From Halobaculum saliterrae (GTDB lineage Archaea; Halobacteriota; Halobacteria; Halobacteriales; Haloferacaceae): a DNA stretch of 64,000 nt. Location: positions 186,301 through 250,300 of the forward strand of contig NZ_WUUS01000001.1 in assembly GCF_009831625.1 (NCBI RefSeq). The letters are read 5' to 3'. Both the position numbers and the translations under genes were made by a program. The notes under the pieces are model-generated. The model saw only the letters and a list, made by a program, of their open reading frames with translations, did no database searches and had not been told where the DNA came from. Below are positions 8,605 through 24,427 of this stretch, piece by piece. Within the stretch, counting starts at the first letter, position 1. Every line of letters begins with the position of its first letter.

Positions 8605-9038
8605 CGGCTCTCACCTCCGTCGGTCGCGGCGGAGTCGTCGTCCGCCGCGTCGTCGGCCACGCGCCCGCCGTCCGCGGCGACGGCGCTGGAGTCCGAGTCC
8701 CCCGGCTGGCGCATCCGGCCGGCGAGCCGGCGGAACGCGCCCCAGTGGAGGAACACCATGAACAGGATGAACACGCCCATGATCACGTCGGCCGCGTGCG
8801 TGATCGCGATCAGGAAGTCGAGCCAGGCGATCTGGTTCCCGGAGGTCCAGTCGGACCCGACGCCGGCGTTGGCGCCCTCGGCGACGGGCTGGATGCGGAA
8901 CAGCTCCTCGTAGAACACCGCGAAGTCCGCGGCCCACCACAGGATCAGCGCCGTCACCGCGAGCGCGACGACCGCGTTGATCGCGATCGCCGTCCGCGGG
9001 TAGCCCTTGGTCTCCGGAAGGTGCTCTCGGTAGCTCAT
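8601..9038 (-). CDS. Small membrane subunit of the formate dehydrogenase operon
   Basis: 145 residues. Two hydrophobic helices (about 17-38 and 75-97) are followed by a 40-residue acidic, disordered C-terminal tail. His residues sit at the ends of the second helix (AITHAADVIMGVF, FLHWGAF) and could bind haem or quinone, which is inference. Four-base overlaps with both neighbours place it firmly in the operon. It has no counterpart in the classic three-subunit FdnGHI enzyme and I cannot name a family. Confidence 0.75.
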   Translation of the reverse strand: MSYREHLPETKGYPRTAIAINAVVALAVTALILWWAADFAVFYEELFRIQPVAEGANAGVGSDWTSGNQIAWLDFLIAITHAADVIMGVFILFMVFLHWGAFRRLAGRMRQPGDSDSSAVAADGGRVADDAADDDSAATDGGESR

Positions 9039-9727
9039 GCGTTGCTCCCCTCGAACTCGTCGGCGTCCTCGCCGAAGATGATCTCCATCGCGACGTCGTT
9101 GAAGAACGAGTCGGAGCCGCGCCGGTCGAGCTCGTTGGAGATCTCCTCGGCGTCACCCACGAGCAGCGCGTCGGTCGCGCACTCCTCGGCGCAGGCGGGC
9201 CCCTTGCCGACGTCCTGACGCTCCTCGCACATCGTACACTTGTCCATCGTGCCGCCGTTGCCGAACAGCCGCGCGGCACCCTCGTCGGAGCCGGGGAACT
9301 GCGGCGCGCCGAACGGACACGCGGACAGGCAGTACTGGCAGCCGACACAGAGGTTGTCGCGCACGTCGACGAACCCGTTGTCCTTCTTGATCAACGAGTC
9401 CGTCGGGCACACGGAGACGCACGGCGCCTCCTCGCAGTGGTAGCACTGCATCGGGATCGCCGTCTCGCCGGGCGAGGCGTCCTCCTGCCCGAGCGCGCCC
9501 CCGCTGTTGGTGTTGTACCGCTCCATCGGCTCCGCCGGCTGTCCCTCCAGCATCGTCGAGATGCTGATGCGCTGTTCGTCCCTGGGCACGTCCCACGTGC
9601 GCTTGCACGCGACGACGCACCCGCCGCAGTCGATGCAGGCTTCCACGTCCGGGAAGATCCGAGCATCGTCGCCGGTGCTCATCACCCCCTGACCCATCAC
9701 CTGCTTGCTGGTTTCGTTAGTTGCCAT
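9035..9727 (-). CDS. Four-cluster [4Fe-4S] ferredoxin subunit of formate dehydrogenase
   Basis: 230 residues of the FdnH/DmsB/HybA type. Four cysteine quartets can be read: C31/34/37/41, C95/98/103/107, C127/130/133/137 and C164/167/179/183. They would form the electron wire from the molybdenum subunit to the membrane cytochrome. There is no signal peptide of its own, so if the catalytic partner is exported by Tat this subunit would travel with it. It starts six bases after the stop of the catalytic subunit and overlaps the next gene by four bases. Confidence 0.9.
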   Translation of the reverse strand: MATNETSKQVMGQGVMSTGDDARIFPDVEACIDCGGCVVACKRTWDVPRDEQRISISTMLEGQPAEPMERYNTNSGGALGQEDASPGETAIPMQCYHCEEAPCVSVCPTDSLIKKDNGFVDVRDNLCVGCQYCLSACPFGAPQFPGSDEGAARLFGNGGTMDKCTMCEERQDVGKGPACAEECATDALLVGDAEEISNELDRRGSDSFFNDVAMEIIFGEDADEFEGSNA

Positions 9728-9733
9728 TGGGAA

Positions 9734-12700
9734 TCACTGCACCGTGCTGCTGTCGCGGACGTCGAAGTCCTTCTGCCGGCCGAAGCCGTCCCGGTCCTGC
9801 GGGAACTCGTAGGACTCGATGTCGACGACGTTGTCGGCGAGGCCGTCCTCCTCGACGGGCCGCATCGACAGCTCCTCGACCACCGAGGGCGTCGCCTTCT
9901 GGATCCGTACCATCGACGCCTTCGTCTCCTGCATCTGCGTCTCCACGTCGTAGCCGCGGGAGGTGATCGCGTTCACCGACTCCCCGATGGCGTACGGTAC
10001 GGTGCCGTCGGGATAGCGGTCCTCCAGCGACTCGCCCTTGAACATCCCGCCCCAGTGGAACGGGAAGAACGTCTCGCTGTCGTTCGGACGGTGGGTGACG
10101 CGCGCCTTCAGCAGGATCGAGCCGCGGTCGGTCGTCGAGGCGACGACGAGGTCGCCGCCGTCGATGCCCAGCCGCTCGGCCATGTCGGGGTTGATCTCCA
10201 CGTACATGTGCGGCTGGAGGTCGGCGGTGTGTTTGTTCGAACGCGTCTCGGAGCCGCCGCCCTGATGTTCGACCTGGCGACCGCTCGTGAGGATCGTCCA
10301 CTCGGCGTCGCCCGACTGCTCGTCGAAGGCGCCGGCGTCGGTGAGCCGCTGCATGGACTCCTCCTGGACCGTCGAGTTGTTCTGGTCCAGCCGGTAGAAG
10401 TTCCGCTGCTGGCCGTTCGACGGCCACTGCTCGACGAGGTCCGGCCGCGGGCTCTCGATCGGCTCGCGGTGGACGGGCGTCGTGTCGAGGAAGCTCCAGA
10501 CGACGCCGCGGGCGCGGCCGCGCCCGGTCGGCGCGTCCGGCTGCGGGTTGTCGAACTGGCCGTAGAAGTCCATGTCGTAGTCGGCCCAGTCGTACTTCTG
10601 GTTCATCGCCTCGGCGGTGTCGGCGACCGACGTGTCCTCGCGGAGCGCGTACTCGTACGGGAGCGTCAGCGCGTCCGCGTTGTGCGGGTCGTCCGGCATC
10701 GTCGTCGCGAAGCCGGGGTACTGCGGAACGCCCTCGATCGTGCCGTCCCACCACTCCGGTTCGTAGGAGTCACGCAGCAGGCTGAGGCCCTCCTCGCCCT
10801 GCTGGTCGTACGTCGTCTGCATCGGGTACGGCTCGTCGGTCGCCATCTCCTCCCACTCCTCGGGGGTGGGCGCCTGCACGCCCCACCGGGTGCGGAAGTC
10901 CTGTCCCCCGTCGCGGGGGTCCATGTCGTCGTTCCAGAGGATCGGCGTGCCCGGGTGCCCCTCGCCCCAGCACGGCCACGGGAGCATCCAGTACTCGCCG
11001 TCGACGGGCGTGCCGGGCGCGTCCGCCTTCGTGTCCTCGGTGGAGAAGGCGTAGTCGTACTCCAGGTGCTGCTGGAGGCGCTCGGGGTCCTGGCAGTAGC
11101 CGATGGTCCGCATGCCGAGGTTGAACTCTCGGATGACCGACTCGTACGTCGACTTGCCGTTGTACAGCGCCGGACCCGAGCCCCAGTCGAAGTGCTCGCC
11201 CATGCCGAGGTGACCCGCCAGCTCCTGCATGATCCGCAGGTCCGGACGGGAGTTGTGACCCGGCGAGCGAACCGGCTCGGACCACTGGGTCGCGCGGTGG
11301 GAGTTCGTCAGCGAGCGGTAGTGCTCGTACTGGCTGGATGCCGCGAGCAGGACGACCTCCGTGTCGGACTGGTCCACGTCGGCGAGCACCGACGCCACCG
11401 ACGGGAACACGTCCACCACGACCAGCAGGTCGAGGTTCTCGATCGCCTTCCGCTGTTTCTCCATCTCGGAGATGGAGTTCAGCGAGTGTCCCCACACGAC
11501 CGCCGCCTTCAGCTCGTTCGGCTGGTAGATCGGCGTCTCGTTCAGCCGCTCCTCCTGGGGGAGCGCGGCGTCGAACCAGCGGGCCACCGTCAGGCCCTTC
11601 TGGAACATCATCGAGTTCTCCGCCGGGAACGACTCGTCGATCTCGTCGGCGTTCTCGGTGTTCGTGGACTGCCGGACGTACTTCTCCGCCGGCATCTCGC
11701 CGTACTCCTCGTACAGGTCGTCGAACTCGATGGTGCCCGAGGTCTGTGGCGTGCGCGACCAGACGTCACACCAGTACTGCCACGAGCCGGGCGAACCGAC
11801 CGAGTAGTAGCCCGGCAGGATGTGGCTCGCGACCGCCAGGTCCGTCGCACCCTGGACGTTCGCGTGCCCGCGCATGACCTGCAGGCCGCCGCCGGACTGG
11901 GCCGCCGCGCCGGCGCCCAGCGAGAGCATCGCGTACGAGCGGATGTTCTGGGTCCCGTTGTTGTGCTGGGTCCCGCCCATCGCCCACTCGATCTGCATCT
12001 TCGGCTGGTTCTCGACGATGAGGTCCGTCAGCTCCTCGATCTCGTCGGTCGAGAGCCACGTGATGTCCGACACCGTCTCGAGGTCGTAGTCGTCGAGGTC
12101 GTCCTCGACGTCCGGCCACGCCTGCACGCGGCCCTCGAGCATGTCGTCGTCCAGCTCGCCGCGGTCGCGGAGCTGCTTGATGACCCCCATCATGAGGGCC
12201 ACGTCCGTGCCGGGACGGAGGCGGTAGAAGTAGTCGGCGTGGGCCGCGGTCTTGGTGAACCGCGGCTCGACGACGACGATGTCCCCGCCGCGCTTCTGGC
12301 CCTCGAGGATGTGCTGCATCGCGATCGGGTGGGCCTCCGCGGGGTTCTGCCCGATTATCAGGTTCATATCGAAGTTCCGATAATCGTTGATCGAGTTCGT
12401 CATCGCCCCGTAGCCCCACGTGTTCGCGAGGCCGGCGACCGTCGTCGAGTGGCAGATCCGCGCCTGGTGGTCGACGTTGTTCGTGCCCCACAGCGACGCG
12501 AGCTTCCGGAACGCGTACGCCTCCTCGTTGGAGTGGTGCGCGCTCCCGAGCCACATCGTGCTGTCGGCGCCGTACTCGTCTTTGATCCGGGTCAGCTCGT
12601 CGGCGACCGTGGAGTACGCCTCGTCCCACGAGAGCTTCTCCCAGCCGCCGTCGACCTTCCGCATCGGCGACTTCAGCCGCCGCTCGGAGTGCTCCGTCTC

Positions 12701-13003
12701 GTAGATGCCGGCGCCCTTCGAGCAGAGCGATCCGTTGTTGACCGGGTGCTCCTCCCACGGCTCCATGCCGACGAACGCGTCGCCCTTCTTCTCGCCGTGG
12801 AAGCCGCAGCCGACCGAGCAGTAGTTGCAGATCGTCTTCGTCAGCTCGTTGTGATCTGTGTCCGTTCCGTCCTCTTCCCCGTCGTCGCTCTGCGCCAGCG
12901 CCTGTCCGGCGCCGCCGCCACCGAGGGCGACCGCGCCGGCCAACGCGCTCGCCTTCATGAACGACCGTCTGTCTAGGTCCAGTGAGACCGGTTCCGTGCT
13001 CAT
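9734..13003 (-). CDS. Formate dehydrogenase catalytic subunit, Tat-exported, Cys-type
   Basis: 1089 residues of the molybdopterin oxidoreductase family. Residues 11-36 are a twin-arginine signal (DRRSFMK, hydrophobic stretch, AQA-like end). A [4Fe-4S] site is formed by C59, C62, C66 and C94. The active-site motif is ARIC184-H185, the Cys-His pair that marks formate dehydrogenases, with Cys in place of selenocysteine. The C-terminal domain (about 950-1075) is the molybdopterin dinucleotide-binding fold (FFPFHWGGMFKGES). The ATG at 13001-13003 places the RR motif correctly. It heads the four-gene operon, and the signal implies the enzyme faces outward. Other dimethyl sulfoxide reductase-family substrates are less likely given the Cys-His pair. 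Confidence 0.88.
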   Translation of the reverse strand: MSTEPVSLDLDRRSFMKASALAGAVALGGGGAGQALAQSDDGEEDGTDTDHNELTKTICNYCSVGCGFHGEKKGDAFVGMEPWEEHPVNNGSLCSKGAGIYETEHSERRLKSPMRKVDGGWEKLSWDEAYSTVADELTRIKDEYGADSTMWLGSAHHSNEEAYAFRKLASLWGTNNVDHQARICHSTTVAGLANTWGYGAMTNSINDYRNFDMNLIIGQNPAEAHPIAMQHILEGQKRGGDIVVVEPRFTKTAAHADYFYRLRPGTDVALMMGVIKQLRDRGELDDDMLEGRVQAWPDVEDDLDDYDLETVSDITWLSTDEIEELTDLIVENQPKMQIEWAMGGTQHNNGTQNIRSYAMLSLGAGAAAQSGGGLQVMRGHANVQGATDLAVASHILPGYYSVGSPGSWQYWCDVWSRTPQTSGTIEFDDLYEEYGEMPAEKYVRQSTNTENADEIDESFPAENSMMFQKGLTVARWFDAALPQEERLNETPIYQPNELKAAVVWGHSLNSISEMEKQRKAIENLDLLVVVDVFPSVASVLADVDQSDTEVVLLAASSQYEHYRSLTNSHRATQWSEPVRSPGHNSRPDLRIMQELAGHLGMGEHFDWGSGPALYNGKSTYESVIREFNLGMRTIGYCQDPERLQQHLEYDYAFSTEDTKADAPGTPVDGEYWMLPWPCWGEGHPGTPILWNDDMDPRDGGQDFRTRWGVQAPTPEEWEEMATDEPYPMQTTYDQQGEEGLSLLRDSYEPEWWDGTIEGVPQYPGFATTMPDDPHNADALTLPYEYALREDTSVADTAEAMNQKYDWADYDMDFYGQFDNPQPDAPTGRGRARGVVWSFLDTTPVHREPIESPRPDLVEQWPSNGQQRNFYRLDQNNSTVQEESMQRLTDAGAFDEQSGDAEWTILTSGRQVEHQGGGSETRSNKHTADLQPHMYVEINPDMAERLGIDGGDLVVASTTDRGSILLKARVTHRPNDSETFFPFHWGGMFKGESLEDRYPDGTVPYAIGESVNAITSRGYDVETQMQETKASMVRIQKATPSVVEELSMRPVEEDGLADNVVDIESYEFPQDRDGFGRQKDFDVRDSSTVQ

Positions 13004-13020
13004 TGTGTTATGTTGACATT

Positions 13021-13035
13021 CACCACTGGTTGGTG
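13021..13035. promoter_or_regulatory. Dyad just upstream of the formate dehydrogenase start
   Basis: CACCA (13021-13025) and TGGTG (13031-13035) are perfect inverted arms around CTGGT, with an inner ACCACTGGT palindrome. The dyad sits 18-32 bases before the start codon. It may be an operator or a leader hairpin. Confidence 0.35.
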
Positions 13036-13168
13036 GGCTATCGTCACGGTGCACGTAATCGACCTCCTTTAATCTTCGCTACGATCGTGACTGGATTTTT
13101 TCGGCCCTCCTAAAATAACCGGAAAGATCACCCGGAACACGGCTGTCCCACGATCCCCCTGCGCAAGG

Positions 13169-13174: not shown

Positions 13175-13198
13175 GGCGCCACCCCGTTGGCTCCGACG

Positions 13199-15349
13199 AT
13201 GAACGTCGGGGCATTCGTCTGTTCGTGCGGGGGGACCTGCGACGTGGACCTGGAGTCGGTCCGCGACGGGGTCCGCGATGTCGACGTGGTCGCGTCATCG
13301 GAGCAGCTGTGCCGGGACGCGCTTCCGGCCGTCGACGGACTGATCGACGAGTACGACCTCGACCAGTTGATCGTTGGCGCCTGCGACGACGGCTGTAAGT
13401 CGAAGTTCGACGACCTGGTCGAGCGCAACGGACTCCACCCGGACGCGGCCGCCTACGTCGACCACCGCGAGCGGGCCGGGTGGGTCCACGAGCGCGACGA
13501 CGCCACCGACAAGACCGCGCGACTGATCAACGCCCGCAGAACCGGCATCGAGTACGAGGCAGCCACGCGCACCGTCTCGCGGGAGGCCGGCGAGCAGGTG
13601 CTCGTCGTCGGCGACGCCGAGACCGCGGCCGCGCTCTCCGATTCCGCCGAGGTGACACTTCTCGCGGACGGCGCGGAGTACGCTGACGCCGACGCGGATC
13701 TCTCGGACGTTAGCGTCGAGCGTGGCCGCCTCGTCGCCGTCGATGGGGGGTTCGGTGAGTTCGAGGTGCAGGTCGAGGCGCGCGTCACCGACGACTGTAT
13801 CTCCTGTATGAAGTGCGTGAGGGAGGGCCCGGACGGGATGGTGACGCGCCGCCCCGTCGACATCCACCCGGACGCCCCGGAGGGCGAGTGGACCGACTGC
13901 TGTCCGACCGACGCGATCGATCTGTCGGGCGTCACGGACACCCTCGACGCGGACCAAGTCGTCGACCCGGCGGGTACGTCGACCGCGCGGGCTGGCCGCA
14001 TCGGCTACTACACGGGCCCGGTCGACGCCGGAACGATCGCCTCCGTGGAGTCGCTGTTGGGCGGGGTCGAGAAGCCGAAGTACCTCGATCTGCAGATGGA
14101 CGTGTGCGCCGCGGGCGACTCCGGCCAGCAGGGCTGTACCGCCTGCGTCGACGCCTGTCCGCACGACGCCGTCGACCGGCCGGCGGTCGACGAGGTCGAG
14201 TTCGACCTGACCGCCTGCGAGAACTGCGGCGCGTGCACCTCCTCGTGCCCGACGGGCGCGACGTCGCTGCGGGAGCCGTCGAACGAGCGGATCGCCCGCG
14301 AGGTCGAGGCGCTGCTCAGCCGCGAGACCGACGAGGGCGGCATCTGGCCGTTCACCGGGAGCGACGACGGCATCGAGACCCCCGTCGTCGCGTTCACCTG
14401 CGACGAGCGCGCCGCCGCGGCCCTCGACGAGTACGGCCGGCGCGCGGCCGCCGGCGAGGACATCACCTACCCGCCGGTCCTTCCGGTGGAGGTGAACTGC
14501 ACCGACACCGTCGGCGAGGGACACGTCATGCACGCGCTCGCCGCGGGCGCGGCCGGCGTCGCCATCGTCGGCTGCGGGGGCTCGTGTCTCCACTCCGGCC
14601 CGGACCCGAAGGCGGAACTCGTCGAGCGGCTCAACCGCGCGACGAGCGATCTCGGGCTGGGCGAGCGCGTCGGGTTCTTCGCGCCCGACCCGCACGAACC
14701 CGGCGCGTTCGCCGAGGAGCTGGGTCGCTTCACGGAGCTGACGCTGGACCCGACGCCCGTCCCCGAGGGCGAGCACCGCGCGACGGGCGTCGTCCGCGAG
14801 GACAAGCCCAACCCCGCGTTCAACAGCCACGACTGGACGCTCGAGTCGGTGCGACGGATCCTGGAGTTCGCCGAGCCCGAGCGCGAGACCATCCGCGGAC
14901 TGAAGGACTTCGGCGTGATGTCCGTCTCCGACGCCTGCAACCTCACGCCGACGTGTTCGACGCTGTGCCCGACGGACGCCATCCGGCGGACCGACGACGG
15001 GAACCTCCAGTTCAACCACGAGGACTGCGTCAACTGCGAGCTCTGTGAGGAGGGCTGCCCCGAGACCGCGATCACGATGGAGCAGGGATTGGACCTCTCG
15101 CGCCTCCCCGAGAACCGGACGGCCGGCGAGGGCGCCGTCGCCGACGACGACCCGCGCTGGGAGACGGTTCACGACGGCGAGATGCTGGAGTGCGCCCGCT
15201 GCGGCGACCCGTTCACCTCGGCGGCCTCCGCCGAACACATCCAGTCGGAGGTCGGCGGCCTCGTCGAGGGGATCGCGCCCGACTCCGATCACAGCGTCTT
15301 CGAGTACTGCGGCGACTGCCGCGCGCAGTTGCTGTTCGACAACCGTTGA
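13199..15349 (+). CDS. HdrA/MvhD-like multi-cluster iron-sulfur protein
   Basis: 716 residues, cytoplasmic (no signal). Domains in order: an HdrA-type N-terminus (VCSCGGTC), a degenerate Rossmann-like strand (EQVLVVGDAETAAALS) lacking the GxGxxG of HdrA flavin sites, and a ferredoxin quartet CISCMKC...CC. Two ferredoxin quartets follow (GCTACVDACP, CENCGACTSSCP), then an MvhD-like domain (AFTCDE, VNCTDTV, VGCGGSC). Two further C-rich motifs (TCSTLCP, CVNCELCEEGCP) precede a zinc-ribbon-like C-terminus (CARCGDP, CGDC). About six clusters are possible. It diverges from the formate dehydrogenase and precedes its chaperone, so it may exchange electrons with that system. No HdrB or HdrC is encoded nearby. 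Confidence 0.78.
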   Translation: MNVGAFVCSCGGTCDVDLESVRDGVRDVDVVASSEQLCRDALPAVDGLIDEYDLDQLIVGACDDGCKSKFDDLVERNGLHPDAAAYVDHRERAGWVHERDDATDKTARLINARRTGIEYEAATRTVSREAGEQVLVVGDAETAAALSDSAEVTLLADGAEYADADADLSDVSVERGRLVAVDGGFGEFEVQVEARVTDDCISCMKCVREGPDGMVTRRPVDIHPDAPEGEWTDCCPTDAIDLSGVTDTLDADQVVDPAGTSTARAGRIGYYTGPVDAGTIASVESLLGGVEKPKYLDLQMDVCAAGDSGQQGCTACVDACPHDAVDRPAVDEVEFDLTACENCGACTSSCPTGATSLREPSNERIAREVEALLSRETDEGGIWPFTGSDDGIETPVVAFTCDERAAAALDEYGRRAAAGEDITYPPVLPVEVNCTDTVGEGHVMHALAAGAAGVAIVGCGGSCLHSGPDPKAELVERLNRATSDLGLGERVGFFAPDPHEPGAFAEELGRFTELTLDPTPVPEGEHRATGVVREDKPNPAFNSHDWTLESVRRILEFAEPERETIRGLKDFGVMSVSDACNLTPTCSTLCPTDAIRRTDDGNLQFNHEDCVNCELCEEGCPETAITMEQGLDLSRLPENRTAGEGAVADDDPRWETVHDGEMLECARCGDPFTSAASAEHIQSEVGGLVEGIAPDSDHSVFEYCGDCRAQLLFDNR

Positions 15350-15386
15350 GGGCCGACCGCCCACTCCCCCACCCCACACAGACACC

Positions 15387-16019
15387 ATGAGCACCGACGA
15401 ACTCGCCGTCTACGACGCCCGGATCGAACTGATCGACTTCTGTATCGAGGTGTTCCACGACGCGCCGACCGAGGAGTTCCTCTCGCATCTCCTCTCGGGC
15501 GACATGCGAACCCCCGAGGACAGCGTCAACGACCACCTCGACGCCGGGTTCGAACACGTCCGGGCGTTCGTCGACGCCCACGAGGGCGACGACGTCGAGG
15601 AGCTCCACACCGAGCTTCGCCGGAAGTACACCGAGGTGTTCGTCGGCCCGCGCCCGCCGGTCCTGCTGCACGAGACGAACTACCGCGAGGACACGGAGTT
15701 CATCGGCGAGGGGCTCGCGGAGGTCGAGGCCAGCTACGGCGCCGCCGGGTGGACGCCGCCCGAGGAGTACCCCGAGGAGAACGACTTCGTCGCCGTCGAG
15801 CTCGCGTTCCTGCGGTGGCTCGTCACCAAGCAGCGCGAGGGACGGGACGAGACGTTCGGCTACGAGCGCGTGTTCCTCGACAACCACCTCATGACGTGGG
15901 TCGACGACGCCGTCGCCGAGGTTCACGAGGAGACGGACGAACCCCTGTTCCTGGCGGCCGCGGAGATCCTCGCGGGGCTCGTGGAGTTCGAGGACGAGAT
16001 CGTCGCACAGATGGCGTAA
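15387..16019 (+). CDS. TorD/DmsD-family molybdoenzyme chaperone
   Basis: 210 residues, all-helical, acidic. It matches the TorD/DmsD/NarJ chaperone family, which binds the Tat signal of molybdoenzymes and holds them for cofactor loading. Family-like segments are LRRKYTEVFVGPRPPVLLHETNY and LAFLRWLVTKQREG (about residues 145-165), followed by FLDNHLMTWVDDAVAEV. It starts 37 bases after the HdrA/MvhD-like gene on the same strand, so both are likely cotranscribed. The Tat-exported formate dehydrogenase across the divergent promoter is the obvious client, by inference from position. Confidence 0.85.
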   Translation: MSTDELAVYDARIELIDFCIEVFHDAPTEEFLSHLLSGDMRTPEDSVNDHLDAGFEHVRAFVDAHEGDDVEELHTELRRKYTEVFVGPRPPVLLHETNYREDTEFIGEGLAEVEASYGAAGWTPPEEYPEENDFVAVELAFLRWLVTKQREGRDETFGYERVFLDNHLMTWVDDAVAEVHEETDEPLFLAAAEILAGLVEFEDEIVAQMA

Positions 16020-16836: not shown

Positions 16837-16964
16837 GATGAGAGATCGCTCGGTCCGCGGACTCAAAGCGTTTGTGTCGGGACCGACGGCCGCCGACGCC
16901 GCCCGTTGCCCGAGTCCGTGGCGACCGAACGCTTTTGCCCGCGTGAGCCGTGACACGTCATAGA

Positions 16965-18158
16965 ATGCCGTCACGACGGAGCATGCTGGGGAAGCTCGCG
17001 GTCGCGGCCGGGATCGGCGTCGCCGGCTGCACGACCGGCGCGCCGCCCGGACTCCCGCTCGACGCCAACCCGCACTCGGTCCCGAGCAGACAGTTCGCAC
17101 AGAACGACGTACTCCGTCGCGACGCCGACGGCAACGAGCTGCAGGCGCGCCACCGACGAATCCTCCTGTTGGACTTGAAGCGCGAGCCCTCCGAGGAGGC
17201 CGCCGAGGCCGTCGAGCGCGCGCTCCGGACCGTCGAGTCGGCGTACGACTGGGCACCCGACGGGCTGTTTCACGCGCTCGCGTGGGGGTCGACGTACTTC
17301 GACGACAACGGCGCGCTCGGCCGCGTGCCCATCGAACACCCCGAAGTGCTCACCCGCACCGACGACGAGGCGCTCCAACGGTTCGACGCGATGCTCGTCC
17401 TCGAATCGGACGTGCAGTCGCACCTCCCGGCGGCCGAGAGCGCGCTGTTCGGCTCGCGCGACGAGCTGAACGGCGAGCCGGTCGAGCACACCCTCGACGG
17501 CGTGTTCCGTCGCCGTGACCGGCGGACCGGCTTCCTCGGCGAGGGACTGCCCGCCGAGCACGTGGACGTGGAAGGGCTGGAGGCGGACGCGCCGATGTTC
17601 TCGGGCTTCTTCTCGGGCCGGGAGGGATCGCAGGCGAGCGAGGACCGCGTCGCCATCGAGGACGGCCCGCTGGCCGGCGGCACCACCGCCCACCTCTCGC
17701 ACATCACGTTCGACCTCCCGTCGTGGTTCTCCTTCGACCAGGGGAGCCGGATCGGGAAGATGTTCTCGCCCGACTTCACCGGCGAGGACGTGGCGGACCT
17801 CGGGACGGACGTGCCGTTCGCCGACGCGGTGCGCGAGCACGCTCGCGACCACGGCAGCGTCGGGCACCACGAGAAGGTCGCGCGCGTCCGACGTGACGGC
17901 GAGCCGCTGGTGCTCCGTCGGGACTTCAACACCGTCGACGACGGACGCACGGGCGTCCACTTCCTCAGCTACCAGCGCGAGCTCGAGCACTTCCGGCGGA
18001 CGCGGAAGTCGATGAACGGTTGGTACCTCCGGGACGACCACCCCGACATCACGGACCGCGAGAACAACGGGATCCTCGAGTTCATCAGCACCGAGTCGCG
18101 GGCCAACTTCGTCGTCCCGCCGCGGGAGAAGCGGGCGTTCCCGCTCACGATCACCTGA
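16965..18158 (+). CDS. Tat-exported DyP-peroxidase-like protein, degenerate
   Basis: 397 residues. The N-terminus SRRSMLGK followed by a hydrophobic run and AGC is a twin-arginine lipoprotein-type signal. The body resembles dye-decolorising peroxidases: GFLGEGLP sits where the family has GFxDG, and the end resembles the family C-terminus (VARVRRDGEPLVLRRDFN, TGVHFLSYQRELEHFRRTRKSMNG). The catalytic Asp of GxxDG appears replaced and the usual proximal-His motif is not obvious, so peroxidase activity is doubtful. The ATG at 16965 gives the correct Tat spacing; an in-frame ATG five codons upstream is less good. Monocistronic. Confidence 0.65.
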   Translation: MPSRRSMLGKLAVAAGIGVAGCTTGAPPGLPLDANPHSVPSRQFAQNDVLRRDADGNELQARHRRILLLDLKREPSEEAAEAVERALRTVESAYDWAPDGLFHALAWGSTYFDDNGALGRVPIEHPEVLTRTDDEALQRFDAMLVLESDVQSHLPAAESALFGSRDELNGEPVEHTLDGVFRRRDRRTGFLGEGLPAEHVDVEGLEADAPMFSGFFSGREGSQASEDRVAIEDGPLAGGTTAHLSHITFDLPSWFSFDQGSRIGKMFSPDFTGEDVADLGTDVPFADAVREHARDHGSVGHHEKVARVRRDGEPLVLRRDFNTVDDGRTGVHFLSYQRELEHFRRTRKSMNGWYLRDDHPDITDRENNGILEFISTESRANFVVPPREKRAFPLTIT

Positions 18159-19675: not shown

Positions 19676-20599
19676 TCACCCCGGGTCGGTGTCGTCGCCG
19701 CCGTCGACAGCGTCCGCGTCGCCGACGGTGTCGTCGCCGGTGGCGTCCACGTCGCCGTCGACCGCCCAACCCGACGCCTCTGCGGCCTCCGCGAGCGGGA
19801 CGAACTCCCAGCCGGCGCGCTCGGCCCACGCGCGCTCGCCCGCCGACTCGACGCCGACCAGCACCATCCGTTCGGCGTGGAACATCGAGTTCGGGCCGAC
19901 CTCCTCGAGGCGCTCGCTCGGGCCGGTGCCGGTGCCGTTGAAGAAGTCCAGATCCAGCCGGTTGTCCCGCTGGTACTTGTTGATGACGTGGGCGTCCACG
20001 TCGCCGACGATGCCGACGTAGTCGGTCCACGTCTCGGCGTCCGCGAGCGCGGCGTGGAGGTTCGACAGCGACCGGATCGCCCGGTACGACAGCGCCATCG
20101 TCATCTCGCTCTTCGTCTCGCCGTGGGGGCCCGTCGCCTCGGGCTGTTCCTGGGTCTCCTCGTCGCGCGCGTCGGCCGGGACGCCGCCGCCGCCCCCGCC
20201 CTCGCGGGGAATGCCGACGGGCTTGTCGTCGTCCGCGTACGGCACTCGCGGCGTCGACGACTCCAGATCCGCGCCGAGGTCGTCGTCGTACTCCGTCGGC
20301 TCCGGCTCGTTCGCGCCTAACTCGTCCGCGCGAGCGGCGCCCGAGCGCCACCCGTCGGTCGAGTCCGCCGTGTCGGCGCCGTCGTTCGGAGCGGAGCCGG
20401 CGGCGGCGTCGCCGGCGGACCCGGCGTCGTCGTCGGTCGCGTCTCCGTCGTCGGTCGCGGCCGGATCGGCTCCCTCGTCCGCGTCGGCTCCCCCGGCCGG
20501 GTCGCCGCCGTCGTCGTCCCAGAACCAGTCGCCGCGGTTGGGTCGCTCGTCGTCGTCGGGCTGTACGTCGAGTTCGTCGAGGTCGATCTTGTCTGGCAT
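19676..20599 (-). CDS. Conserved haloarchaeal protein with a long acidic linker
   Basis: 307 residues. Residues 1 to about 160 are a low-complexity Asp/Ala/Gly-rich region with a short N-terminal motif (MPDKIDLDELD). Residues about 165-280 form a folded domain (MALSYRAIRSLSNLHAALADAETWTDYVGIVGDV, HAERMVLVGVESAGERAWAERAGWEFVPLAEAAEASGW). The tail is acidic. The domain matches a conserved haloarchaeal domain of unknown function. It starts just 11 bases after the stop of the upstream AOR-like gene, so the two may share a transcript. Confidence 0.65.
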   Translation of the reverse strand: MPDKIDLDELDVQPDDDERPNRGDWFWDDDGGDPAGGADADEGADPAATDDGDATDDDAGSAGDAAAGSAPNDGADTADSTDGWRSGAARADELGANEPEPTEYDDDLGADLESSTPRVPYADDDKPVGIPREGGGGGGVPADARDEETQEQPEATGPHGETKSEMTMALSYRAIRSLSNLHAALADAETWTDYVGIVGDVDAHVINKYQRDNRLDLDFFNGTGTGPSERLEEVGPNSMFHAERMVLVGVESAGERAWAERAGWEFVPLAEAAEASGWAVDGDVDATGDDTVGDADAVDGGDDTDPG

Positions 20600-20610: not shown

Positions 20611-22374
20611 TCAGTCGTCCGCTCGCGGGCGGTCGGTGCATCGGTCGAGCGCGTCGCTCGGGAGCTCCAGCGCCTCGCAGCGTTCGGCCGTCGGGATCCC
20701 CCGGTCGTTCCACCCGCGGGCGGCGTAGTAGGCGTCGAGCAGCCGCTCGAACGCCTCGCCGTCGACGGCGCGGCCGGCCGCGGGCGCGTCCCCGGCCGGG
20801 AGCGGCTCGGCGAACTGGGGCGGGAGGGTGTCGTCGCCGCGGTCGAACCCCTCGCGGGCGTTGAACAGCCGAACGAGCGTCCACACGCGGTCGCCGACGC
20901 GGCGGAGGTCGTCGTGCGGGACGCCGAGCGCGTCGAGCCACTCCGCGCCCAGATCGTCCCACAGCGTCTCGCCGGCGAAGTCGTCGACGACGAGGCTCCA
21001 CAGCACCGCGCGGGCGTTCTGGGCGCCGACGACCGCCTCGACGCGGCGGGCGGTGTCCCAGTCCTCCCGGAACACCTCCTCCTCGATGGGTCGCGCGCGG
21101 CGGTGACAGCCGCCGCGGTCGGCGGTCGCGTACGCCAGCGCCATCCCGAGCGCGCCCCGGGGGTCGTAGGCGGGGAGCTCCATCGACTTCACCGTGGGCA
21201 CGTACTCGTCGCCGCCGTATCGCTCGGCGGCAGCGTCGACGCCCTCCGCGAGCGCGTCGGCGAGGTCGTCGCCGTCGTCACGGCGAGCGATCCGTTCGAT
21301 GAGGTCGCGCGCGCCCGCCTCGTCGCCGAAGTCGAAGTCCGCCTCGCCGGCGCGCACCGCCCACGCGACGGCGTTGCCGGCGGTGATCACGTCGACGCCG
21401 AGGCGGTCGCACGCCTCGCCCAGCGCCGCGACGGCGTCGAAGTCGTCCATCCCCAGCCCCGCCCCGAGCGTCATCGGGGCGGCGCCGCGGGGAACCGTCT
21501 CGCCGTCGTCGGTCTCGACGCGGAAGCCGCCGGGCACGTCCTCCTCGGGATGCTCGCGGCCGGCGGCCGCCTCGGTGGCCGCCTCGATCCCGATCCCGTC
21601 GACCTCGTTGGCGGTGTCGCGCCAGCCGTTCGCGGGCAGCACGCCCACCTCGGCCGCGAAGTCGATCGACTCCAGCGTCTCGCCCGCGGTCTGCCACTTG
21701 CCGGCGTCGTCGGCCGCGAACGCGTCGGCGTACGTCTCGCGCAGCGCCGCGAGCTCGTCGGGCACGTCCGGCGGGTCGCCGCGGGCGACGACCGCCTTGA
21801 GGTTCTTCGAGCCCATCACCGCGCCAGCGCCGCCGCGACCCGCGTGGTGGTCGCCGGCGTCGGACGCGATCGTCGCGTACGCGACCTCGCTCTCGCCGGC
21901 GGGGCCGACGCACGCGACCGCCGCGTCGGGATACGCCTCCGCGGTGACGACCGTGTCCGCGCCCGCGAGGTCGCCCGCCGGTTCGAGCCGGGGCTCGCCG
22001 TCGCCGACGACGAGCGCGGTCGGCTCCTCGGCCGCGCCCGTCACCAACACGCCGAGACAGTCGGGCAGCGACCCCGCGAGCCGGTCGGGGAACGTTCCCC
22101 CGGAATAGGAGTCGAGGAACGCGCCCGTCAGCGGCGACTTCGTCACCGCGGCGTAGCGCGACTCGCCCGGGAGCGCGCCCGACAGCGGGCCGAGCACGAA
22201 CCCGAGGAGGTTCTCGGGACCGCGGGGGTCGGCCCCGGGAGACAGCTCCTCGTACAGGTATCGCGCGCCGAGCCCCTTGCCGCCGAGGTAGCGGCGTCGC
22301 CACTCCGCGGGCACCGGCTCGAACCCGACGGTCCCGGCCGAGAGGTCGACGCGAAGCACCCGGGTCCGTGTCAT
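20611..22374 (-). CDS. Aldehyde:ferredoxin oxidoreductase homologue lacking [4Fe-4S] ligands
   Basis: 587 residues of the tungsten AOR family. Pterin-binding signatures are present: GGKGLGARYLYEEL (about 31-44), GRGGAGAVMGSKNLKAVV (179-196) and ATADRGGCHRRARP (416-429). The family normally has CxxCxxxC and a distant Cys binding a [4Fe-4S] cluster. Here the expected region (265-300) has no cysteine, and the distant position reads LVVDDF instead of a Cys-bearing segment. The six cysteines in the protein are all isolated. The ATG at 22374 is preferred to the GTG six bases upstream because a TATA box sits 24-31 bases away. A cofactor gene, mobA, diverges from it. The substrate and electron partner are unknown. 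Confidence 0.85.
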   Translation of the reverse strand: MTRTRVLRVDLSAGTVGFEPVPAEWRRRYLGGKGLGARYLYEELSPGADPRGPENLLGFVLGPLSGALPGESRYAAVTKSPLTGAFLDSYSGGTFPDRLAGSLPDCLGVLVTGAAEEPTALVVGDGEPRLEPAGDLAGADTVVTAEAYPDAAVACVGPAGESEVAYATIASDAGDHHAGRGGAGAVMGSKNLKAVVARGDPPDVPDELAALRETYADAFAADDAGKWQTAGETLESIDFAAEVGVLPANGWRDTANEVDGIGIEAATEAAAGREHPEEDVPGGFRVETDDGETVPRGAAPMTLGAGLGMDDFDAVAALGEACDRLGVDVITAGNAVAWAVRAGEADFDFGDEAGARDLIERIARRDDGDDLADALAEGVDAAAERYGGDEYVPTVKSMELPAYDPRGALGMALAYATADRGGCHRRARPIEEEVFREDWDTARRVEAVVGAQNARAVLWSLVVDDFAGETLWDDLGAEWLDALGVPHDDLRRVGDRVWTLVRLFNAREGFDRGDDTLPPQFAEPLPAGDAPAAGRAVDGEAFERLLDAYYAARGWNDRGIPTAERCEALELPSDALDRCTDRPRADD

Positions 22375-22484: not shown

Positions 22485-23204
22485 ATGTCACGGTACGCCG
22501 TCGTCGTCGCCGGCGGGCGCTCGACCCGCTTCGGCGACCGCGACAAGGCCGTCGCCGATCTGGCCGGCACGCCGATGATCCGCCGCGTCGCCGACCGGGT
22601 CGCCGACGCGACCGACCGACTGGTCGTCAACTGCCGGAGCGACCAGCGCGAGGCCATCGAGGACGCGATGGCCGGATATCCGAACCCAGTCCGCTACGCC
22701 GAAGACCCCGAGCCGGACGAGGGACCGACCGCCGGCATCCGTACCGGCCTCCGGGCGGCGGAGGCGTGGGCGGACGACGACGGCACGGCCGACGGACGCG
22801 ACGCTGCCGCGTTCGTCGTCGCCTGCGACATGCCGTTCGTCGACCCCGCCCTCGTGGCGGCGCTGTTCGACCGCCTCGACGGGGACGGCGAGGGCGACGC
22901 GGGGGACGACGAGGGCGACCAAGGAGACGACGGGGGCGACTCGCCCGACGCTGTCGTCCCCCGCGTCGACGACGAGTGGTTCCAGACCACCCACGCGGTG
23001 TACCGCGCCGGGGCGATGGCCGACGCCTGCGACGACGCGCTCGCGCGCGGCGACCGCAAGGTGATCGCGCCGCTGTTCGAGTTAGAGTACGAGACGGTCG
23101 GCGCCGACGACCTCGCGGCGCTGGGCGTCGACGACCGGAGCTTCGAGAACCTCAACACCCGCGAGGAGTTCGAGGCGGCCGCCGAGGCGTTCGCCCGACG
23201 GTAG
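22485..23204 (+). CDS. mobA: Molybdenum cofactor guanylyltransferase MobA
   Basis: 239 residues. It transfers GMP to molybdopterin to make the dinucleotide cofactor used by formate dehydrogenase-type enzymes. The GTP-binding motif VAGGRSTRFGDRDKA is at residues 8-22, and CDMPF (114-118) is the metal-binding Asp region. Residues 132-154 are an Asp/Gly/Glu-rich insertion (from repeated GGCGAC/GACGAC codons), probably an expanded surface loop. The ATG at 22485 gives the canonical N-terminus. The gene ends in TAG immediately abutting the stop of the convergent yqeC-like gene, with no spacer base. Confidence 0.9.
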   Translation: MSRYAVVVAGGRSTRFGDRDKAVADLAGTPMIRRVADRVADATDRLVVNCRSDQREAIEDAMAGYPNPVRYAEDPEPDEGPTAGIRTGLRAAEAWADDDGTADGRDAAAFVVACDMPFVDPALVAALFDRLDGDGEGDAGDDEGDQGDDGGDSPDAVVPRVDDEWFQTTHAVYRAGAMADACDDALARGDRKVIAPLFELEYETVGADDLAALGVDDRSFENLNTREEFEAAAEAFARR

Positions 23205-23960
23205 CTACGCCTCGATCACGTCGACGATCCGCCCCTCGCCGAGCGCCGCGAGCACCACGCGGTCGAGCCGACCCGCCCCGTCGGCCTCGAACGCCGCAGC
23301 GGCGACCTCCCGTGCGACGGCCTCGTCGTCGGCGTCGTCCACCTTGTTCACCAGCGCGACGACCTCAGCGTCCGGTGGGACGTCCTTCAATCCGCCCTCG
23401 GGGGAGGCGAGCACGCGGCCGACCGCCTCGGGGGTGATCCGCTCGCCCTCGTCGATCCCTGCGATCGATGCCACGCGCTCGGGACGGTGGACGCGTTCCT
23501 CGGTCAGCGGTTCGCCGACCGCGTGGGCGGAGGCGATCGGCACGACCGCGTCGGCGCTCGCGGGCACCTGCGGCTCGCGGTCGTCGGGCGCCTTGAACTC
23601 GCGCATCCGCGCGCCGTCGGCCTTCACGAGCACCGGGCCGTCGTGGGCGGCCGCGAGGTCGTCGACGACGTCGACCTCGTAGCCGAGGTAGCGGTCGTCG
23701 CGCTCCCGCTCGGGGACGAGCCCGAGCGGCCAGTCGGCGGCGTCGCCGTCGCGGTCGACGGCCGCCAGCGCGTCCACCGGGTCCTCGGTCACCGCGACGC
23801 GCGCGACGTGGTCGTCGAAGATGGGGATGCGGACCGTCGCGGTGACGACCGCGCGGTCGAGGCGGTTCGCGAGCGTGTACAGGGTCGTCTTCTTGCCGCC
23901 GGCGCCGACGACGCAGACGAGCCCCTCGGTCGGGAGGGCGTCCTCCGGTTCGATGGTCAC
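23205..23960 (-). CDS. yqeC: YqeC-like (selenium-dependent hydroxylase accessory) P-loop protein
   Basis: 251 residues. The N-terminal VCVVGAGGKKTTLYTLANRL is the P-loop-like start of the YqeC family, linked to maturation of molybdenum hydroxylases. PVLVKADGARMREFKAP and ALVNKVDDADDE (an NKxD-like GTPase motif) are also family features. The start is GTG at 23958-23960, five bases after the stop of the upstream membrane protein; no ATG fits. With mobA it marks this area as Mo/W cofactor handling. Whether selenium is involved is unknown; no selenocysteine gene is seen here. Confidence 0.75.
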   Translation of the reverse strand: MTIEPEDALPTEGLVCVVGAGGKKTTLYTLANRLDRAVVTATVRIPIFDDHVARVAVTEDPVDALAAVDRDGDAADWPLGLVPERERDDRYLGYEVDVVDDLAAAHDGPVLVKADGARMREFKAPDDREPQVPASADAVVPIASAHAVGEPLTEERVHRPERVASIAGIDEGERITPEAVGRVLASPEGGLKDVPPDAEVVALVNKVDDADDEAVAREVAAAAFEADGAGRLDRVVLAALGEGRIVDVIEA

Positions 23961-23965
23961 GTCCG

Positions 23966-24427
23966 TCAGTTCGGGTCGGCGGCCGAGTAGCTTGCGCCAC
24001 GGGCCAGCGAGAGCGCGGCGCCCGCGACGCCGCCGGCGACGAACGGGACCGTCCGCTCGGCGACGCCCGCGGCCGCCACCAGCGGCGGGCCGGTCGTCGT
24101 GTCCGAGCCGAGGAGGCCGAACGCGACGGTGGCGCCGGCGAAGGCGAGCACCGCCACGCCGGCGAACACGGCGGCGGTCCGCAGGACCGTTCCGGTCCCG
24201 GTGTCGCCCATTCCGGCGGCGTAGCCCGCGGCGCCGCCCGCGACCGCGCTCGCCAGCGCCGACAGCGCGGCGGCGGCGGTGAGCAGCCAGACGGTGTCGC
24301 GGGAGAGGTCGATCAGCGTCGTGGCGAGTCCCTGTCCGACGGCGAACAGGCCCGCGACGACACCGGCCGCGAGCGCCAGCACGATCTGTCTGTCGAGACG
24401 TCCGTATCCGCGCGTGGTGGAGGGCAT
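23966..24427 (-). CDS. Small polytopic membrane protein (153 aa)
   Basis: 153 residues with four hydrophobic segments, about 13-34, 45-70, 82-108 and 115-143. They are Ala/Gly/Val-rich and lack charged residues. The ATG at 24425-24427 has an AT-rich box (GATTTGTTTT on the minus strand) about 25-33 bases upstream. It is in tight tandem with the yqeC-like gene (5-base gap). Function unknown; a partner in cofactor or ion transport is only a guess. Confidence 0.6.
   Translation of the reverse strand: MPSTTRGYGRLDRQIVLALAAGVVAGLFAVGQGLATTLIDLSRDTVWLLTAAAALSALASAVAGGAAGYAAGMGDTGTGTVLRTAAVFAGVAVLAFAGATVAFGLLGSDTTTGPPLVAAAGVAERTVPFVAGGVAGAALSLARGASYSAADPN

What the first reader, a model, noticed from the sequence alone, without database searches (positions are those of the whole stretch)
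20611..22374. AOR-family protein that has lost all four [4Fe-4S] cluster ligands
The pterin-binding signatures of tungsten aldehyde:ferredoxin oxidoreductases are kept, but CxxCxxxC and the distant C-terminal cysteine are absent. Residues 265-300 contain no Cys, and the distant site reads LVVDDF. In characterised AORs this cluster is the electron exit to ferredoxin. A pterin enzyme without it would need another acceptor, or might be a non-redox or regulatory protein. It diverges from mobA and may be cotranscribed with an acidic protein of unknown function.
Basis: partly seen in the sequence, partly recalled or inferred. Interest (0 to 1): 0.72.

Follow-up and report, generated by a model that had tools for sequence, protein, structure and literature searches.

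The report
Cluster-less tungsten-enzyme relative tied to formate dehydrogenase
Many salt-loving archaea keep a relative of tungsten aldehyde-oxidising enzymes that has lost its iron-sulfur cluster and key catalytic residues, and it travels with genes linked to formate dehydrogenase and its molybdenum cofactor, which suggests it helps build or carry that cofactor rather than oxidise aldehydes.

Summary
ORF 20611-22374(-), 587 aa, is an intact AOR-family protein (PF02730 + PF01314) with none of the four [4Fe-4S] cysteines. The CxxCxxxC loop is deleted and C494 is Asp. The catalytic Glu313 is Ala and the second pterin motif (D489...C494) is also gone, so "pterin signatures kept" is only half true. 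The rest of the pocket is strongly conserved. All 62 aligned haloarchaeal orthologue rows share the loss and form one clade (100/100). Its sister clade keeps every cysteine and the Glu, which fits one ancestral loss. Purifying selection is strong (dN/dS 0.03-0.23) and the predicted fold is intact (TM 0.89-0.91 to AOR/FOR). In 242 haloarchaeal genomes the gene occurs in 133. All 133 carry yqeC; none of 73 yqeC-less genomes has it. It often lies beside yqeC, mobA and formate dehydrogenase alpha. FdhD, the usual FDH cofactor sulfurase/loader, was found in none of the 242. Best reading (confidence about 0.42): a non-catalytic former tungsten enzyme that binds a molybdopterin cofactor or precursor in a YqeC-MobA-FDH maturation module. 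Rivals: an enzyme with another acceptor or non-redox chemistry, or a cofactor-free regulatory subunit. No biochemistry was done.

The parts
20611..22374 (-). AOR-family protein without Fe-S ligands (called AOR* here), 587 aa
   Evidence: Pfam AFOR_N and AFOR_C; PDB sequence hits 9mqx 3.5e-76, 1aor 8.5e-70; AF2 pLDDT 91.3, pTM 0.93; TM 0.89-0.91 to AOR/FOR
21487..21555 (-). residues 274-296: place of the CxxCxxxC loop, shortened, no Cys; model confidence drops only here (279-282) and at the C-terminus
21481..21483 (-). Ala298 in place of catalytic Glu313 (PEYES -> PRGAA)
   Evidence: A55/G4/S3 in AOR*, E in all 5 sister and 17 other family members
21391..21408 (-). first pterin motif DRLGVD (residues 323-328), kept
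   Evidence: D328 62/62
21103..21105 (-). His424 = His448 of AOR, kept 62/62
20983..21000 (-). second motif DxxGLC replaced by W459-S-L-V-V-D464 (cluster ligand C494 -> Asp)
   Evidence: W 62/62, D 62/62
22485..23204 (+). mobA-like molybdopterin nucleotidyltransferase, divergent, starts 110 bp apart
   Evidence: PF12804 9.3e-32; TIGR02665 2.2e-23, below its curated cut-off
23205..23996 (-). yqeC (exact start uncertain)
   Evidence: TIGR03172 3.4e-49, over cut-off; PF19842 8.9e-30
19676..20599 (-). acidic DUF7124 protein, same strand, 11 bp after AOR*
   Evidence: PF23439 3.9e-36; in the neighbourhood cluster of 16 loci
9734..13054 (-). formate-dehydrogenase-type alpha subunit, Tat-type RR signal, Cys201-His202 active site (start uncertain)
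   Evidence: TIGR01591 3.3e-130, 435 bits, below its cut-off of 666; PF00384, PF01568, PF04879; motif
9035..9727 (-). 4Fe-4S subunit next to FDH alpha
   Evidence: PF13247 1.6e-16
13187..15349 (+). FlpD/4Fe-4S protein, 720 aa
   Evidence: PF02662 2.6e-17
15345..16019 (+). TorD/NarJ-like molybdoenzyme chaperone
   Evidence: PF02613 7e-22

Best explanation
AOR* is a former tungsten aldehyde oxidoreductase that has become a non-catalytic, cofactor-binding maturation factor. It keeps the AOR fold and most of the pterin pocket but has lost the electron exit ([4Fe-4S]) and the catalytic Glu. It would bind molybdopterin or a metal-MPT intermediate and work with YqeC (a P-loop-like protein) and MobA (guanylyltransferase) to assemble, hold or hand over the Mo/W-bis-MGD cofactor of haloarchaeal formate dehydrogenases, in a lineage where FdhD was not found. 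Shown here: the loss and its conservation, intact predicted fold, conserved pocket, strict co-occurrence with yqeC, neighbourhood with yqeC/mobA/FDH, no FdhD hit. Inferred: ligand binding, lack of catalysis, and the role in maturation.
For: Pocket positions are far more conserved than the protein as a whole (0.91 vs 0.72; 0 of 20000 random samples) although cluster and Glu313 are gone. dN/dS 0.026-0.23. Single clade whose sister keeps all ligands. 133/133 AOR* genomes have yqeC, 0 of 73 yqeC-less genomes has AOR*; repeated within genera (16 of 19 mixed genera). AOR* within 12 kb of yqeC in 56 of 105 and of strong FDH alpha in 32 of 92 genomes with listed coordinates; gene order varies while the gene set stays; L128 has yqeC-AOR*-FDH-mobA on one strand in a row; one genome (G192) has two AOR* copies, each beside its own FDH-NuoF pair. 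FdhD found in 0/242 (second model in own genome E 0.12). True SelD in only 20/242 and the AOR*-linked YqeC is a separate clade from the SelD-linked one, so the link is not to selenium. FdhD's role (binds bis-MGD, sulfurates, loads FDH) is from PMC13197769.
Against: AOR* is not needed wherever FDH and yqeC occur: 33 of 159 genomes with both lack it, and several have yqeC-mobA-FDH without it. Thirteen genomes have strong FDH without yqeC. FdhD is missing from all genomes, so its absence does not track AOR*. AOR has a bis-MPT pocket without nucleotides, and no MGD-binding feature was identified. In C. difficile a yqeC deletion had no clear phenotype (PMC11448449). The neighbourhood also holds a GSH-independent formaldehyde dehydrogenase in some genera, which suits a metabolic role as well. 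No binding or expression data.
Confidence: 0.42

Rival explanations
1. AOR* is still a W/Mo-pterin enzyme, either passing electrons from the metal to another acceptor or doing non-redox chemistry (hydration, isomerisation), in haloarchaeal C1 metabolism beside formaldehyde and formate dehydrogenases.
For: T243, Y427 (or Phe), H448, R76, D338, D343 and the Mg/phosphate loops are kept; pocket strongly constrained; a GSH-independent formaldehyde dehydrogenase (TIGR02819 7e-100, below cut-off), NuoF-like and FDH genes are neighbours in Halorubrum and Haloferax.
Against: Glu313, the proposed proton acceptor (PMC12096430), is A/G/S in 62/62 and Tyr312 and Tyr452 are lost; the second pterin motif is lost. 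Redox AORs need a way out for electrons, and no flavin or Fe-S partner was found in every locus.
Confidence: 0.28
2. AOR* binds no metal cofactor and is a regulatory or structural subunit, for example a partner of a canonical AOR paralogue, of FDH, or a sensor of pterin status.
For: Loss of cluster, Glu and one pterin motif together; canonical AOR paralogues exist in the same genome; co-directional DUF7124 gene 11 bp away.
Against: Pocket residues are the most conserved part, unexpected if nothing binds; 55 genomes have another AOR-family match but no AOR*, and the tight genomic partner is yqeC, not canonical AOR.
Confidence: 0.25
3. AOR* is a decaying gene or an assembly artefact.
For: Several normally invariant residues are missing.
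Against: Present in 133 of 242 genomes, dN/dS 0.03-0.23, same changes in 62 rows from different assemblies, pLDDT 91.
Confidence: 0.01

Closest known systems
AOR/WOR family (tungsten aldehyde:ferredoxin oxidoreductases; 1AOR, FOR 1B25, 9MQX, H. volcanii WOR83 9Q1T)
   Same: Both Pfam domains, whole fold (TM 0.89-0.91), first DxxGLD motif, R76, GG and AGRGG loops, T243, Y427, H448
   Different: No [4Fe-4S] ligands, no Glu313, second pterin motif lost, cluster loop deleted, tied to yqeC/mobA/FDH genes
Sister haloarchaeal AOR clade (L091-L094, L096)
   Same: 42-46% identity; shares Y93, H182-H183 and R450
   Different: Keeps CxxCxxxC, C494 and PEYET; different neighbours (aldo-keto reductase, amidase, arginase-like by sequence)
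FdhD (bis-MGD sulfurtransferase/loader of formate dehydrogenase)
   Same: Proposed function only: cofactor-binding maturation factor of FDH
   Different: No FdhD domain in AOR*; FdhD not found in 242 haloarchaea
YqeB/YqeC/SelD accessory system of Se-dependent molybdenum hydroxylases
   Same: Shares the YqeC family and a MobA/MocA-type enzyme
   Different: No true SelD in this genome; the AOR*-linked YqeC forms a clade apart from SelD-linked YqeC; the likely target is FDH, not a Mo hydroxylase, by neighbourhood

Membership tests
AOR/WOR family (sequence and fold) | AFOR_N and AFOR_C domains, AOR fold | tested here: met
   3.5e-60, 3.2e-78; TM 0.89-0.91
AOR/WOR family (functional) | CxxCxxxC + distal Cys binding [4Fe-4S] | tested here: not met
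   absent in 62/62 rows
AOR/WOR family (functional) | two pterin motifs (338-343 and 489-494) | tested here: not met
   first kept, second replaced by W..D in 62/62
AOR/WOR family (functional) | second-shell Thr243, Glu313, Tyr427, His448 (PMC12096430) | tested here: not met
   three kept (Tyr427 is Phe in 12 rows), Glu313 lost
AOR/WOR family (functional) | bound W/Mo-bis-metallopterin with Mg | not testable with these tools
   needs purified protein
Class I WOR (PMC13328260) | single large subunit holding one [4Fe-4S] cluster | tested here: not met
   no ligands
FdhD/NarQ | PF02634 homology | tested here: not met
   AOR* has only AFOR domains; no FdhD in 242 genomes
Se-dependent Mo hydroxylase accessory system | SelD in the genome and SelD-linked YqeC | tested here: not met
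   SelD over cut-off in 20/242, not in G000; YqeC of the other clade
FDH maturation factor (functional class) | needed for FDH cofactor content or activity | not testable with these tools
   needs deletion mutant; only genomic association shown

The most novel reading that the evidence does not exclude
Haloarchaea replaced FdhD with a different FDH-maturation module (YqeC + MobA, often + AOR*), in which a former tungsten enzyme has been turned into a cluster-free carrier or assembly scaffold for the Mo/W-pterin cofactor.
Probability: 0.28. Interest if true: 0.85.

Novelty: new variant of a known kind. Interest (0 to 1): 0.62.

Why it matters
AOR/WOR enzymes are described as having very little variation in cluster and cofactor ligands (PMC13328260, PMC12096430); neither paper, in the passages searched, mentions a cluster-less clade. 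Here is a widespread, selected clade without the cluster and without Glu313. Its strict link to yqeC, whose function is unknown, and to formate dehydrogenases in a lineage where FdhD was not detected makes two open questions testable: what YqeC does, and how FDH gets its sulfido-bis-MGD cofactor without FdhD.

Tried and rejected
Frameshift/sequencing error: rejected by orthologues. Replacement cysteines elsewhere: none conserved; CGxC only in a Halorubrum subgroup. Selenium link through yqeC: SelD absent in 149 of 169 yqeC genomes and YqeC clades separate. General Moco-synthesis marker: MoaA is in 238/242 genomes, far wider than AOR*. N93->Y and A183->H as sign of a lost Mg site: dropped, because the Mg is bound by the main chain at these residues (PMC12096430) and the cluster-bearing sister has the same residues. 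YqeC fold search gave only weak P-loop NTPase matches (SRP receptor, MeaB, HypB; TM 0.35-0.41), a lead only. Paper searches for a cluster-less AOR gave nothing and for haloarchaeal FDH with FdhD nothing relevant.

Full report
OBSERVATION. The ORF at 20611-22374 (minus strand) encodes 587 aa from an ATG at 22374. It matches AFOR_N (3.5e-60) and AFOR_C (3.2e-78) over nearly its whole length, and solved AORs by sequence (9mqx 3.5e-76, H. volcanii WOR83 6.4e-71, 1aor 8.5e-70). Against P. furiosus AOR the three N-terminal cluster cysteines (C288, C291, C295) fall in a deletion and the distal one (C494) is Asp464.

MORE IS LOST THAN THE CLUSTER. In the same alignment E311-Y312-E313 becomes R296-G297-A298, D489 becomes W459, and Tyr452 becomes Arg428. 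Glu313 is a proposed proton acceptor in AOR catalysis, and Glu313, His448, Tyr427 and Thr243 are described as conserved second-shell residues (PMC12096430). Kept are R76, the GG (95-96) and AGRGG (184-188) loops, D338 and D343 of the first pterin motif, T243, Y427 (Phe in 12 rows) and H448. So the second pterin motif is gone and the statement that pterin signatures are kept is half right. Asn93 and Ala183, which bind Mg through the main chain (PMC12096430), are Tyr and His, but the cluster-bearing sister clade has the same residues, so nothing follows from that.

NOT AN ARTEFACT. One collection scan gave about 50 haloarchaeal relatives (57-90% identical) and bacterial ones at 28-35%. With loci drawn from whole genomes, 62 full-length orthologue rows were aligned (some species occur twice): none has the three N-terminal cysteines, all have W at 489 and D at 494, and position 313 is A (55), G (4) or S (3). 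Seventeen other family members and five sister-clade members all keep C288/291/295, C494 and E313. dN/dS against same-genus orthologues is 0.026 to 0.23 (pairwise, YN00, or NG86 where that failed). The predicted structure has mean pLDDT 91.3 and pTM 0.93; apart from the C-terminus, confidence falls below 50 in a segment only at 279-282, where the cluster loop was. Best PDB matches are AOR and FOR (TM 0.85-0.91 for the five closest).

ORIGIN. A maximum-likelihood tree of 52 sequences of the kept set puts all 32 rows labelled AOR* in one group, with the five cluster-bearing haloarchaeal sister rows (42-46% identity to the query) next to it, joined at 100/100 (rooted at the midpoint). This fits one loss of cluster and Glu in an ancestor that had both. 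Positions taken as the cofactor pocket from the literature and from family knowledge are more conserved within AOR* than the protein as a whole (0.91 vs 0.72; 0 of 20000 random samples as high). I chose the list of pocket positions, and such positions are conserved in the family generally, so the test says that the constraint has not relaxed, not that the same ligand is bound.

PARTNERS. In the window AOR* diverges from mobA (start codons 110 bp apart), yqeC follows mobA on the other strand, and DUF7124 follows AOR* after 11 bp. A formate-dehydrogenase-type operon with a 4Fe-4S protein, an FlpD/4Fe-4S protein and a TorD-like chaperone lies at 9-16 kb. The FDH alpha keeps the active-site Cys-His (Cys201) but is below the TIGR01591 curated cut-off (435 vs 666 bits), so 'FDH-type' is the safe name. 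In other haloarchaea the order differs but the set recurs: yqeC and mobA beside AOR* in Haloferax, Haloprofundus, L023, L040 and others; FDH, NuoF-like, ZigA-like CobW and formaldehyde-dehydrogenase-like genes in Haloferax and Halorubrum. L128 has yqeC-AOR*-FDH-mobA on one strand; L126 and L127 are two AOR* copies of one genome, each next to its own FDH-NuoF pair.

CO-OCCURRENCE. In the same 242 haloarchaeal genomes (at least 90% complete): AOR* in 133 (assigned by me at about 50% identity or more), YqeC in 169, MoaA in 238, strong FDH alpha in 172 (E < 1e-200, my cut; the tool counts 174 over the curated cut-off), FdhD in none, true SelD in 20. Every AOR* genome has yqeC; none of the 73 without yqeC has AOR* (the Fisher p of 7e-35 is not corrected for kinship). 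As a check against kinship, among 19 genera with both AOR*-bearing and AOR*-lacking members, 16 contain an AOR*-lacking genome that lacks yqeC too. yqeC and strong FDH overlap in 159 genomes. Among genomes with listed coordinates, AOR* is within 12 kb of yqeC in 56 of 105, and within 12 kb of a strong FDH in 32 of 92; the lists were cut at the best matches, so these are partial. FdhD absence was checked with a second model in the window's genome (E 0.12, not a match); the control set rang in other archaea but not in Haloferax volcanii.

YQEC IS NOT HERE A SELENIUM MARKER. YqeC was proposed as an accessory of selenium-dependent molybdenum hydroxylases (PMC2276186), and its deletion had no clear phenotype in C. 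difficile (PMC11448449). In haloarchaea 149 of 169 yqeC genomes lack true SelD. YqeC splits into a SelD-linked group and an AOR*/mobA/FDH-linked group (100/100). A core of yqeC-mobA-FDH-NuoF also exists without AOR* (L118, L119, L121).

MECHANISM. The best-supported account is that AOR* is a cluster-free, probably non-catalytic protein that binds molybdopterin or a metal-MPT intermediate and serves the YqeC-MobA-FDH module in cofactor assembly or hand-over. FdhD normally binds bis-MGD, sulfurates it and loads FDH (PMC13197769); its absence leaves that step unassigned in haloarchaea. The gene association, conservation and predicted fold are shown here; ligand binding, lack of catalysis and the maturation role are inferred. 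Against it: 33 of 159 genomes with yqeC and strong FDH lack AOR*, so AOR* cannot be an obligatory substitute for FdhD, and 13 genomes have strong FDH without yqeC. A remaining enzymatic role in C1 metabolism and a cofactor-free regulatory role are not excluded.

NOVELTY. Two recent family overviews describe little variation in the cofactor and cluster residues and do not mention a cluster-less clade in the passages searched (PMC13328260; PMC12096430); full-text searches found no description. The library lacks most subscription papers. It is a new variant of a known family with an unusual genomic association.

Noticed in passing
242 haloarchaeal genomes; own genome G000: FdhD (PF02634) was not detected in any haloarchaeal genome although 172 have a strong FDH alpha.
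   Followed up: partly
L111-L117 versus L118-L125 and AOR* loci: Haloarchaeal YqeC forms two groups: one next to selD, one next to mobA/FDH (often AOR*). The annotation 'selenium cofactor biosynthesis protein' is doubtful for the second.
   Followed up: yes
L126 4230-13053 and L127 4251-12279 (genome G192): Two AOR* copies in one genome, each with its own FDH and NuoF-like genes.
   Followed up: yes
L091-L094, L096: Cluster-bearing sister clade of AOR* with aldo-keto reductase, amidase or arginase-like neighbours (named by eye from sequence); function unknown.
   Followed up: partly
L067 2480-4351: Proteobacterial AOR-family protein with His448 -> Val and Asp343 -> Cys though it keeps the cluster ligands.
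   Followed up: no
G000:C1:181573-182757 (about 4 kb before the window start): A canonical AOR paralogue with all cluster Cys (L001) lies on the same contig, about 24 kb from AOR*.
   Followed up: no
window 16950-18158 (+): DUF7405 protein with weak Dyp-peroxidase C-terminal similarity, between the FDH-type operon and AOR*.
   Followed up: no
window 23205-23996 (-), model m642e79acfb7b: YqeC model (pLDDT 93.9) resembles P-loop NTPases such as SRP receptor, MeaB and HypB only weakly (TM 0.35-0.41).
   Followed up: partly
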